Shown: positions 41,536 to 56,923 of the stretch, in pieces
How positions within the stretch are numbered: position 1 is the stretch's first letter
Layout: each line of letters begins with the position of its first letter
Source of the DNA: Vulcanimicrobium alpinum
GTDB lineage: Bacteria > Vulcanimicrobiota > Vulcanimicrobiia > Vulcanimicrobiales > Vulcanimicrobiaceae
Assembly: GCF_027923555.1 (NCBI RefSeq)
Contig: NZ_AP025523.1
Location: forward strand, 2,360,484 to 2,424,483
Direction: 5' to 3'
DNA length: 64,000 nucleotides
Position numbers and translations under genes: made by a program
The notes under the pieces: generated by a model
The model's database searches: none
What the model was told of the DNA's origin: nothing
The model's input: the letters and a program-made list of their open reading frames with translations, nothing else

Positions 41536-42251
<716 letters not shown>

Positions 42252-52981: not shown

Positions 52982-53411
52982 TCAGCGACGCGTCGGCCAG
53001 TAGTAGTCCACGCCGTAATAGTCGTAGATCTGCTCCTCGCGCGACCGATCGTTCCAATCGAAGTCGCCGTTCCCACCGCCGCTGCCGCTACCGACGCGGT
53101 TGAACGTAGGCGCCCGGCTCAACTGATCCTGCGTGATATCGGTGCGGAATCCGCCGAGGTTCGTGTCGAAACTCAGCTTCCGCCACGGCACCGGATACTC
53201 GTTCACCCATCCCGAGGAAGCCGCCGAACGACATCACGGCATAGGCCGCGTTCCCGCTCGCCTTATCGATGATCAAACGCTTAATCGTCCCGATGTGCTT
53301 CCCGCCGGCATCGTACACCGGCGTCCCCTCAACGCGATCGCTCCCGATCAGCGGCCCGCTCGTCGAAGGATTCGTCGTCCCACCTTGCGTCGACATCGTG
53401 CTGGCATTCAT
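52982..53411 (-). pseudogene. Frameshifted PRC-barrel domain gene
   Basis: The ATG at 53411 follows a GGAGGA ribosome-binding sequence. The first part reads IGSDRVEGTPVYDAGGKHIG then RLIIDKASGNAAYAVMSFGG, a standard PRC-barrel start. At about 53203-53212 (GGGATGGGTGAACG) the frame shifts, and the rest of the domain continues one frame over as NEYPVPWRKLSFDTNLGGF then RTDITQDQLSRAPTF and a DY-rich tail ending at 52982. One inserted (or two missing) base explains it. It could be a real lesion or a sequencing/assembly error. Confidence 0.82.
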
Positions 53412-53553
53412 ACAAGTTCCTCCACTGGTGAACGCCCCAACTATTCCCATCACGCCAACACCCCTCGCGAGCGCACGCAAGCTCAACAGACCCGCAACGT
53501 ACAAAAGACTCTTAAAGCGCAGCGAAGCGCACAACGCCACGCTCGTCCCATGA

Positions 53554-53693
53554 GCGGCTCGGGGCGTGCTGCTGTTCGGCGGTACTTGCGAACGAGCGAA
53601 GCCCGGAGGGCGAGAGCGAGCGAGCACGTAGCGACTGAAGCGCAGGATGCGCGAAAGGAGCGTGCCGCCGAACAGCAGCACGCCCCGAGCCGC
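53554..53693. repeat. 140-bp element with perfect 29-bp inverted repeats
   Basis: GCGGCTCGGGGCGTGCTGCT...GGCGG at 53554-53582 is the exact reverse complement of 53665-53693. The 82-bp middle is rich in GAGCGAG/GCGAAG-like repeats. No ORF of note and no transposase lie inside. The element sits between the PRC-barrel gene (52982-53411) and the RND gene (from 53717). It may be a miniature non-autonomous element, a structured RNA or a strong bidirectional terminator. The rest of the interval 53412-53716 shows no gene. Confidence 0.85.
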
Positions 53694-53716
53694 GAGCCCG
53701 CGAACCGCGCGAACGG

Positions 53717-56700
53717 TTACGCGCGAGCCGGTTCTTGCGTTGGCGCGGTCGTGCCTCGTCCGTCCGTATCCGGCGGTCGCGTGATGTGCTTCGACCGCCC
53801 GATCCCAAGCCGATCCTCCAGCCCCGCAATCAGCACGTACAGCACGGGCGTAATCACCAGGTTGAGGATCGTCGACACGATCATCCCGCCGAACACCGCG
53901 GTCCCCAGCGAGTGCCGCGACGCACTCCCCGCACCCGACGCAAACACCAACGGCGTCACGCCAAGAACGAACGCAATCGACGTCATCAAAATCGGACGCA
54001 GCCGCGTTTCGGCCGCGCGCCGCACCGCCGTGATCGTGTCGAGCCCCTGATCGCGCATCTGATTCGCGAACTCGACGATCAGAATCGCGTTCTTCGATGC
54101 CAGGCCGATCAGCATGACGTACCCGACCTGCGCGAAGACGTCGGAGGTGATGCCGCGGATCCACAGCCCGCCGATCGCGCCGAGCAGCGCGAGCGGAACG
54201 GCGAAGAGGATGATCAGCGGATCGGCAAACGACTCGTACTGCGCCGCGAGCACAAGGAACACGAACACGATCCCCAGACCGAAGATCAGCGCGGCCTGCG
54301 CGCCGCTCTCGATCTGTTCGCGTGAGATCCCGCTCCACTCGGACGCGAAGCCCGGCGGCAGATGCGCGGCGAGGCTCTGCATGAAGTTGAGCGCCTCACC
54401 CGACCCGTGACCGGCTTTCGGGCTGCCGGTGATGTCGATCGACCGGTAGAGGTTGAAGTGGGTGATGTTCTGGGGCCCCTTCGTCTGCTGGACGCTCATC
54501 AGCGACGAGATCGGGATCGCCGGCGGCAGCACCTGAGCGCCGTTCGCGATGATCGGCGTGCTCGACCGCACGTAGATGTTGTTGAGGTCGTTGATGCTCG
54601 AGCGGTACGGCTGATCGGCCTGCACGTAGACGCGGTACGACTTGCCGCTCATGTCGAAGTCGTTCACGTAGACCGATCCGAGGTAGACCTGCATCGTGTT
54701 GAACAGGTCGGTGAGCGGGACGCCGAGCGAGAGCGCCTGACTGCGGTCGACGTTGACGAGCACCGTCGGCTTGTCGTTGCGGAACGTCGTGTAGACGCGG
54801 CTGGTCGGCGCAGACGGCGCGTTCGCAGGGATGATGATCGAGTACGCCGCGCCGAGCATCGCCGGAATCCCGGCGTTGCCGCGGTCCTCCAGCTGGAAGT
54901 CGAAGCCGCCCTGGAACCCGAGGCCCGGGATCGCCGGCGGGTTCACCATGAACGCCTGCACGCCGGGGAGGAAGAACAGCTGCATGTTGACGCGGTTGAT
55001 CACCGCATCGAGCGTGTGCTGCGCGCCGGCGCGCTCCGACCATGGCCGCAGACGGATGAACATGGTCGCGTAATTCGAGCCGTTGCCGGTGAAGCTGAAC
55101 CCGGCCGCGTCGAACACGTCGGAGATCTCCGGCTGCTGCTTGAGAATCGACTCGATGATCTTCTGCTTCTGATGCGTGTAGTCGAGCGAGACGCCGGGCG
55201 GCGCCTGCATCGCGATGATCGCGAAGCCTTGATCTTCGTCGGGGATAAAGCCGGTCGGGATGCTGGTGTACGCCCAAGCCGTCACCCCGAGGAGCACCGC
55301 GAACGCGGCCAACGCCGCGTACCGCCACGCGAGGACGCGCGGCAGAACGCGCCGGTAGCCGCTGCGGGTCGCTTCGATAGCGCGGTTCACCGGCCGGAAG
55401 ATCCGGCTTTCGCGGTGCTTGTTGCGGCCCAGCAGCAGCGAGGAGAGCACCGGCGTCAAGGTCAGCGCGCAGAACAGCGAGATCGCGATCGAGCACGCGA
55501 TCGTGAGCGCGAACTGCTTGTAGAGCTGACCCGTCGTCCCCGGGAAGAACGCCACCGGGACGAAGACCGCGAGCAGGACGAGCGACGAGGCGACGACGGC
55601 GCCCTGAATCTCGGTCATCGCTTCGCGGGCGCCCTCCAGCGGCGGCATCCCCTTCTCCTGGATGAAGCGCGCGATGTTTTCGATGACGACGATCGCGTCG
55701 TCGACGACGAGCCCGGTCGCGAGCGTCAAGCCGAAGAGCGTGAGCTGGTTGATCGAGAACCCGAGCACGTTCATCAGGAAGAACGTCCCGATCAGCGAGA
55801 CGGGGATCGTCAGCGCGGGGATCAGCGTCGTGCGCCAATCCTGCAAGAACAGGAAGATGACCAGCACGACCAGCGAGATCGCGATGACCAGCGTGATCAC
55901 GACTTCCTTGATCGACTCGCTGACGAACTCAGTCGTGTCGAACGCGACGTGGTAGGTCATCCCGGCCGGGAACTTCTGCGAGAGCCGTTCCAGCGTCGCG
56001 CGCACTTGCTTGGAGACCTGCAGAGCGTTGCCGCTCTGCAGCTGCAGAACGCCGAGACCGATGCCGTCGTGGCCGTCGAACGCCAAGCCGCCGTTGTAGC
56101 TTTCCGCGCCCAGCGTCACCCGGCCGATGTCGGAGACTTTCACGAACCCGCCGTCGGCCGTCGTGCGCAGGATGATGTTCGAGAACTCGGTGGTGTTCGT
56201 CAGCCGGCCGGTCGCGCGAACGCCGTACTCGTACGGCTGTTTGCCGTTGGTCGGAGGGGCGCCGATCGCGCCCGCCGCGACCTGGACGTTCTGGCTCTGC
56301 AGCGCCGTGACGACGTCGCCGGCGGTCAGGTGGTTGTCGGCGAGCCGCTTGGGGTCGACCCACAGGCGCATCGCGTACTTGCGTTCGCCGAACACGAGGA
56401 CGTCGGAGACGCCGACGATGCGCTTGAGATCGTTCGTGACGTTGTTTTCGAGGTAGTTCGTCATGTAGATCGGATCCCAGCGCGGATCCGTCGACGTCAC
56501 GCCGATCGCCATGACAAACGTCCCGGAGTTCTTCGCGACCGAGACGCCGGTCAGCTTGACCTCGTTCGGCAGCCGGCCTTGCGCGAGATTCACCGCGTTC
56601 TGCACGTCGTTCGCCGCTTGGTCGAGATTGCGATCGAGGTTGAACGTGCACGTGATCTGCGAGGTGCCGTCGCTGCCGCTCTGCGAGCTGATGTAGCGCA

Positions 56701-56923
56701 GGCCTTGCACGCCGTTGATCGCCTGTTCCAGCGGCGTCGTCACCGACGACTCGACGGCTTCGGCGCTGGCGCCGGTGTAAACCGCCGTGACGGTGACCGT
56801 CGGCGGCGCGATGTTCGGGTACTGCGCGATCGGTAAGATCGGAATCGAGATCATCCCGAGCAGCAGGATCACCAGAGACGCCACCGACGCGAAGATCGGG
56901 CGTCGCAGAAAGAACTCGGTCAC
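53717..56923 (-). CDS. RND-family (HAE1) efflux pump inner-membrane transporter
   Basis: 1068 residues from a GTG overlapping the preceding stop (GTGA). Twelve transmembrane helices and two large periplasmic loops, as in AcrB/MexF. Motifs: MTEFFLRRPIFASVASLVIL, YPNIAPPTVTVTAVYTGASA, NQLTLFGLTLATGLVVDDAI (with the Asp pair of the proton relay), FLVLAAQYESFADPLIILFA and a late-helix LIGLASKNAILIVEFANQMR. It ends with a polar tail. No membrane-fusion or outer-membrane partner is adjacent in the window. The substrate range is unknown; family members export drugs and hydrophobic compounds. Confidence 0.95.
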   Translation of the reverse strand: MTEFFLRRPIFASVASLVILLLGMISIPILPIAQYPNIAPPTVTVTAVYTGASAEAVESSVTTPLEQAINGVQGLRYISSQSGSDGTSQITCTFNLDRNLDQAANDVQNAVNLAQGRLPNEVKLTGVSVAKNSGTFVMAIGVTSTDPRWDPIYMTNYLENNVTNDLKRIVGVSDVLVFGERKYAMRLWVDPKRLADNHLTAGDVVTALQSQNVQVAAGAIGAPPTNGKQPYEYGVRATGRLTNTTEFSNIILRTTADGGFVKVSDIGRVTLGAESYNGGLAFDGHDGIGLGVLQLQSGNALQVSKQVRATLERLSQKFPAGMTYHVAFDTTEFVSESIKEVVITLVIAISLVVLVIFLFLQDWRTTLIPALTIPVSLIGTFFLMNVLGFSINQLTLFGLTLATGLVVDDAIVVIENIARFIQEKGMPPLEGAREAMTEIQGAVVASSLVLLAVFVPVAFFPGTTGQLYKQFALTIACSIAISLFCALTLTPVLSSLLLGRNKHRESRIFRPVNRAIEATRSGYRRVLPRVLAWRYAALAAFAVLLGVTAWAYTSIPTGFIPDEDQGFAIIAMQAPPGVSLDYTHQKQKIIESILKQQPEISDVFDAAGFSFTGNGSNYATMFIRLRPWSERAGAQHTLDAVINRVNMQLFFLPGVQAFMVNPPAIPGLGFQGGFDFQLEDRGNAGIPAMLGAAYSIIIPANAPSAPTSRVYTTFRNDKPTVLVNVDRSQALSLGVPLTDLFNTMQVYLGSVYVNDFDMSGKSYRVYVQADQPYRSSINDLNNIYVRSSTPIIANGAQVLPPAIPISSLMSVQQTKGPQNITHFNLYRSIDITGSPKAGHGSGEALNFMQSLAAHLPPGFASEWSGISREQIESGAQAALIFGLGIVFVFLVLAAQYESFADPLIILFAVPLALLGAIGGLWIRGITSDVFAQVGYVMLIGLASKNAILIVEFANQMRDQGLDTITAVRRAAETRLRPILMTSIAFVLGVTPLVFASGAGSASRHSLGTAVFGGMIVSTILNLVITPVLYVLIAGLEDRLGIGRSKHITRPPDTDGRGTTAPTQEPARA

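What the first reader, a model, noticed from the sequence alone, without database searches (positions are those of the whole stretch)
53554..53693. 140-bp element with perfect 29-bp inverted repeats
The arms match exactly over 29 nt around an 82-nt centre, far beyond a normal terminator. The interior is full of AGCGAG-type short repeats. No gene or transposase is inside. It may be a MITE, a structured RNA or a protein-binding palindrome.
Basis: seen in the sequence. Interest (0 to 1): 0.6.

Follow-up and report, generated by a model that had tools for sequence, protein, structure and literature searches.

The report
Gene-end hairpin element with matching arms
The 140-bp hairpin is one of hundreds of related structured DNA elements that sit just after the ends of bacterial genes; their long arms change sequence between species but keep matching each other, so the fold itself appears to be what evolution preserves, and the strand that folds seems to be the one opposite the gene.

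Summary
The hairpin is real and far beyond chance: exact 29-bp arms, against 13-15 bp in simulated windows. The genome is Vulcanimicrobium alpinum WC8-2 (Eremiobacterota). The element belongs to a family: 7 matches here, 131 in 11 genomes of the genus, hits in 55 of 148 genomes of the phylum and in some Planctomycetota. No Rfam family matches.

Anatomy: sharp ends, ~30-bp arms and a conserved core with two small hairpins (a three-way junction). Arms differ by locus and species but stay about 95% paired; in orthologous elements 571 pairs changed on both sides, 125 on one. 88 of 118 elements start 3-44 nt after a stop codon, oriented with that gene; nine of 11 species keep one behind rpsI, the other two have an ordinary terminator there.

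The folding strand appears to be antisense to the gene: mismatches are wobble-type on that strand 87:22, the reverse of published terminators (68:8). Near-identical copies within genomes show dispersal. Best reading: a dispersed, resident gene-end element selected for a structure in antisense transcripts (this last step is inferred). Main rivals: a sense-strand terminator, or a mobile element folding as single-stranded DNA.

The parts
53545..53700 (-). whole element (approximate ends; termini are degenerate in this copy), read in the sense of the upstream RND gene
   Evidence: copies elsewhere share identity from about -7 to +9 around the arms; right-end profile GGCACGAT
53665..53693 (-). 5' arm in gene sense, 29 nt, exact
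53554..53582 (-). 3' arm in gene sense, 29 nt, exact complement
53594..53619 (+). conserved core GAGCGAAGC..GGA..GCGAGAGCGA with inner hairpin 2 (GCCC-GGA-GGGC, 53601-53611); the strand antisense to the gene is shown
   Evidence: invariant columns of alignments A1/A2; GGA loop in 76 of 116 elements
53640..53652 (+). inner hairpin 1 GCGCA-GGA-UGCGC (antisense strand)
   Evidence: sequence; fold
53717..56923 (-). RND efflux pump gene (AcrB family); its stop codon lies 23 nt from the element's arm
   Evidence: Pfam PF00873, 1147 bits
52984..53411 (-). next gene on the same strand, PRC-barrel protein; reading frame appears shifted near 53206
   Evidence: Pfam PF05239; codon signal of the C-terminal part in another frame

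Best explanation
A family of dispersed, ~165-nt structured elements resident at transcript 3' ends. Shown by sequence: conserved ends and core, ~30-bp arms that co-vary, fixed orientation just behind a stop codon or a terminator, long persistence at housekeeping genes, and wobble-type mismatches on the strand antisense to the host gene. Inferred: the folded molecule is RNA read from the downstream side (antisense or convergent transcripts). It folds into a three-way junction with GGA loops and blocks, ends or marks for processing transcription that would run backwards into the gene; some copies also carry a terminator-like hairpin for the sense direction. Copies still spread occasionally, by an unknown route.
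For: 118 of the CM hits examined have arms of mean 30.7 bp, although the arms lay essentially outside the search model; mutual information is 0.8-1.6 bits at every arm position and all four Watson-Crick types occur at every position. Orthologous elements: 571 arm pairs changed on both sides, 125 on one, of 2051. RNAalifold on 8 rpsI elements: 59 pairs, 29 with compensatory change. Mismatches (gene sense) A.C 87 vs G.T 22, p=2.5e-10, in convergent (54:11) and tandem (28:9) contexts; third codon positions show the opposite bias, so mutation bias does not explain it. Published B. cereus terminators show 68 GU: 8 AC on the transcript strand (PMC5381666). Antisense folds better in 110 of 118. 88 of 118 start 3-44 nt after a stop codon. 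rpsI element in 9 of 11 species.
Against: No promoter signal was found for an antisense transcript and no transcription data exist here. Tight spacing to the sense stop codon would fit a sense function just as well. Near-identical copies within genomes show that copying also shapes the family, so some paired changes may come from copying rather than selection. Folded ssDNA would give the same wobble asymmetry.
Confidence: 0.45

Rival explanations
1. An elaborate sense-strand (or bidirectional) transcription terminator: the mRNA folds into the hairpin cluster behind the stop codon and releases RNA polymerase, without needing a U-tract.
For: Position just after stop codons. Ordinary intrinsic terminators occupy the place in genomes lacking the element: rpsI of G007 and G010, where the G010 terminator hairpin matches inner hairpin 1 and keeps a remnant of the 5' arm, and RND of G005. 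About 40 elements have a long inner hairpin 1, some followed by TTTT. Hairpin clusters without poly-U are reported at transcript ends (PMC8355165).
Against: No T-run follows the arms. Wobble asymmetry is the reverse of that in real terminators. Several elements follow a complete intrinsic terminator with its T-tract, where a second one is not needed.
Confidence: 0.27
2. A mobile element acting through folded single-stranded DNA of the strand antisense to the gene, in the manner of integron attC sites or IS200/REP hairpins, inserting at gene 3' ends.
For: Copies in one genome up to 95% identical over just the element; sharp ends; at least 84 and 44 copies in two Planctomycetota; strand-specific fold.
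Against: No Y1 transposase (PF01797) in the own genome, and only in 1 of 11 genomes of the genus; no target duplication noticed; copies kept and re-paired at the same genes in many species, which dead copies would not be.
Confidence: 0.18
3. The arms are kept identical mainly by copying one arm from the other during replication (template switching), without selection on a folded product.
For: Changes are 4.6 times more often on both sides than on one; arms turn over fast between orthologs.
Against: Does not explain the conserved core and ends, fixed orientation, retention at rpsI, or the strand asymmetry.
Confidence: 0.08

Closest known systems
Intrinsic transcription terminators, including hairpin clusters
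   Same: place behind stop codons; stable hairpins; compensatory evolution; ordinary terminators sit there in genomes without the element
   Different: no T-run; much larger; conserved core; wobble on the opposite strand; some elements follow a terminator
REP / GTAG and CGTC palindromes
   Same: dispersed, intergenic, palindromic, several phyla
   Different: REP stems are 5-13 bp with short loops (PMC3733652); here ~30-bp variable arms around an ~82-nt core; no RAYT in the genome
Integron attC sites
   Same: behind genes, variable arms, function on the strand antisense to the gene (attC features from general knowledge)
   Different: ends TGTGGC/GGCACGAT instead of attC core sites; host genes are housekeeping genes
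Bacterial MITE-type repeats (Correia/NEMIS, ERIC)
   Same: size of 100-170 bp, dispersed, palindromic (from general knowledge)
   Different: those have shared terminal repeats; here each locus has its own arm sequence

Membership tests
Intrinsic (Rho-independent) terminator | stable hairpin at the transcript end | tested here: inconclusive
   stable hairpin just behind stop codons; the transcript end itself was not observed
Intrinsic (Rho-independent) terminator | T-run directly after the hairpin | tested here: not met
   after the arms the longest T-run within 25 nt is 1-3 in 112 of 118 (sense) and 0-3 in 117 of 118 (antisense); some inner hairpins 1 carry TTTT
Intrinsic (Rho-independent) terminator | G.U intermediates on the transcript strand | tested here: not met
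   22 G.T to 87 A.C in gene sense against 68:8 published
REP (GTAG/CGTC) element | short stem of 5-13 bp with tag | tested here: not met
   arms mean 30.7 bp; definition from PMC3733652
REP (GTAG/CGTC) element | RAYT (Y1) transposase for GTAG type | tested here: not met
   PF01797 absent in own genome, present in 1 of 11 of the genus
MITE | shared terminal inverted repeats | tested here: not met
   arms locus-specific; only ~8-nt ends conserved
MITE | target site duplication | tested here: inconclusive
   none seen by eye in the few same-genome pairs checked; no systematic test
Integron attC | conserved R'/R'' core sites at the ends | tested here: not met
   right-end profile is GGCACGAT
Known Rfam family | match above gathering score | tested here: not met
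   none in 12 loci holding elements; the window copy only far below cut-offs

The most novel reading that the evidence does not exclude
A widespread, undescribed class of gene-end elements, present in several phyla, whose working form is a three-way junction of the strand antisense to the gene (RNA insulator against backward transcription, or a new kind of ssDNA mobile element), with arms that turn over fast while staying almost perfectly paired.
Probability: 0.35. Interest if true: 0.85.

Novelty: new variant of a known kind. Interest (0 to 1): 0.64.

Why it matters
If true, many bacteria mark the ends of essential genes (rpsI, infB, nusG, hppA, rpsM) with a structured element that is not in Rfam and was not found in the papers searched, and whose fold is on the 'wrong' strand. 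That would open a direct test of how bacteria limit antisense transcription, or reveal a new class of mobile hairpin. The arms also give a natural record of compensatory evolution in a ~30-bp helix over more than a hundred copies, and the host (V. alpinum WC8-2) is in culture.

Tried and rejected
Rfam: no match above cut-offs. Intrinsic terminator in either direction: no T-run after the arms. REP/RAYT: Y1 transposase absent. Antisense promoter within 120 nt: no enrichment over shuffles. Mutation bias as the cause of the A.C excess: third codon positions show the opposite. Another long repeat in the window, 41694-41813, lacks the core. Halomonas, Nitrospira and other single hits of the core pattern: the two such genomes tested gave no model matches, so they are left open. 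A first ortholog-versus-paralog comparison included gene flanks and was misleading; it was redone on elements only. Literature searches found no description in Eremiobacterota or Planctomycetes.

Full report
What was checked. The window's inverted repeat is exact over 29 nt (53554-53582 and 53665-53693) with an 82-nt centre. Simulated windows of the same third-order composition never gave more than 15 nt, and 464 kb sampled across the genome, window included, held no other comparable repeat. The genome is 3,508,363 bp in one contig, which equals the published size of Vulcanimicrobium alpinum WC8-2 (PMC9758169). The repeat lies 23 nt behind the stop of an AcrB-type pump gene and about 140 nt before a PRC-barrel gene on the same strand.

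Finding the family. A search with the centre found two further loci with quite different long arms but the same inner motif, behind rpsI and infB; a motif search added more. In two related species the same pump gene is followed by an element with the same core and different arms. A covariance model of the centre (R1; only a few arm bases included; built from 16 sequences, the window's own among them, which match by construction) finds 131 matches in 11 genomes of the genus, 4-22 each, 7 in the own genome. One of those seven (775458) lacks arms and one (681455) has a shortened core. 55 of 148 genomes of the phylum have hits at E <= 1e-6; two Planctomycetota hold at least 84 and 44. An exact scan of named genomes gave 64 stretches: Eremiobacterota, Planctomycetota, some unnamed bacteria with 26-33-bp arms, and scattered others, many of which look like chance or a smaller shared hairpin. 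One viral contig matched without arms.

Anatomy. The element spans about 165 nt: TGTGGC at the left, ~30-bp arm, core with two small hairpins, arm, GGCACGAT at the right. Profiles fall to near background right after GGCACGAT, and copies in the same genome match over just this span. On the strand antisense to the host gene the core reads GAGCGAAGC-N-GGA-N-GCGAGAGCGA; 107 of 118 elements have a GGA in at least one inner hairpin loop on that strand, none on the other. RNAalifold on rpsI elements gives a three-way junction with 59 pairs, 29 of them with compensatory changes; the sense strand gives 56 and 28.

Arms co-vary. Arms were essentially outside the model, so their pairing is an independent test. 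At each of 30 positions all four Watson-Crick types occur, with mutual information of 0.8-1.6 bits. Between orthologous elements of different species, 1294 of 2051 pairs are unchanged, 571 changed on both sides and 125 on one side. These counts use overlapping species pairs, so they are not independent events.

Which strand folds. Of non-Watson-Crick arm pairs outside the six innermost, 87 are A.C and 22 G.T when read in gene sense; counting distinct sequence contexts only, 71 and 21. A.C on one strand is G.T on the other, so wobble lies on the antisense strand. In Bacillus cereus terminators the transcript strand shows 68 G.U to 8 A.C (PMC5381666). The bias holds for convergent and tandem neighbours, and third codon positions show the reverse mutation pattern. 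In the own genome alone the counts are too small to tell (4 and 3). Antisense also folds better in 110 of 118. RNA and single-stranded DNA cannot be told apart by this.

Where it sits. By codon usage, 88 of 118 elements begin 3-44 nt after (or, in two, 4 nt before the end of) a stop codon of a gene in the same orientation; the next gene converges in 77 and follows in 36. Gene calls are approximate. Nine of 11 species carry one behind rpsI; other shared hosts are infB, nusG, hppA, rpsM, the pump and glutamate dehydrogenase. In the two species without it at rpsI there is an ordinary terminator; that of G010 has the same hairpin as inner hairpin 1 of related elements and keeps part of the 5' arm. 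Among elements 60-240 nt from the stop, most follow a complete intrinsic terminator, one of them behind a tRNA gene. In Planctomycetota orientation is less strict.

Dispersal. In genomes with 16-21 copies, elements at different genes reach 90-95% identity. Over all, orthologous elements (74.7%) are only slightly more alike than others (70-73%). So the family both persists at loci and spreads or is copied between them.

Interpretation. A neutral dead repeat would lose its pairing; these keep it at the same genes across species. That argues for a function in place. The place is that of terminators, but the strand evidence and the terminators already present upstream of some copies argue against a plain sense terminator. 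I therefore favour a structure read in antisense transcripts that protects or insulates the gene end, with moderate confidence. CsrA (11 of 11) and Rho (9 of 11) occur in the genus; GGA loops make CsrA a candidate partner, which is speculation. The descriptive core (one family, co-varying arms, gene ends, antisense-strand signal) I hold at about 0.9.

Noticed in passing
window 52984-53411 (- strand): The PRC-barrel gene appears frameshifted near 53206: its N-terminal part and its C-terminal part (ending ..YDYYGVDYYWPTRR) lie in different frames.
   Followed up: partly
L239, L256 (other Eremiobacterota, palsa MAGs): Elements of the same core with perfect arms of 48 and 46 bp, longer than any seen in the own genus.
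   Followed up: no
L217, L221, L231, L245, L257, L268 (Halomonadaceae): A related hairpin core (TCGCTCTCGC..TCC..GCTTCGCTC) in a repeated context with further CCATCCATGG hairpins, perhaps a distant branch of the same design.
   Followed up: no
L081, L084, L087, L090, L105 near the elements: A second dispersed repeat, CACCCTGAGCTTGTCGAAGGG and variants, often lies close behind the elements in this genus.
   Followed up: no
L078, L079, L088, L089, L094, L097 (G033, G038): In a related family of the class the elements have shorter, similar arms (around GGCATGCC) and are followed by another conserved palindromic stretch (GAGGCGGCGAGAGCCGCC).
   Followed up: no
L135, L160, L137, L186: Elements often occur as facing pairs, roughly 100-800 nt apart, in several cases between converging genes.
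   Followed up: partly
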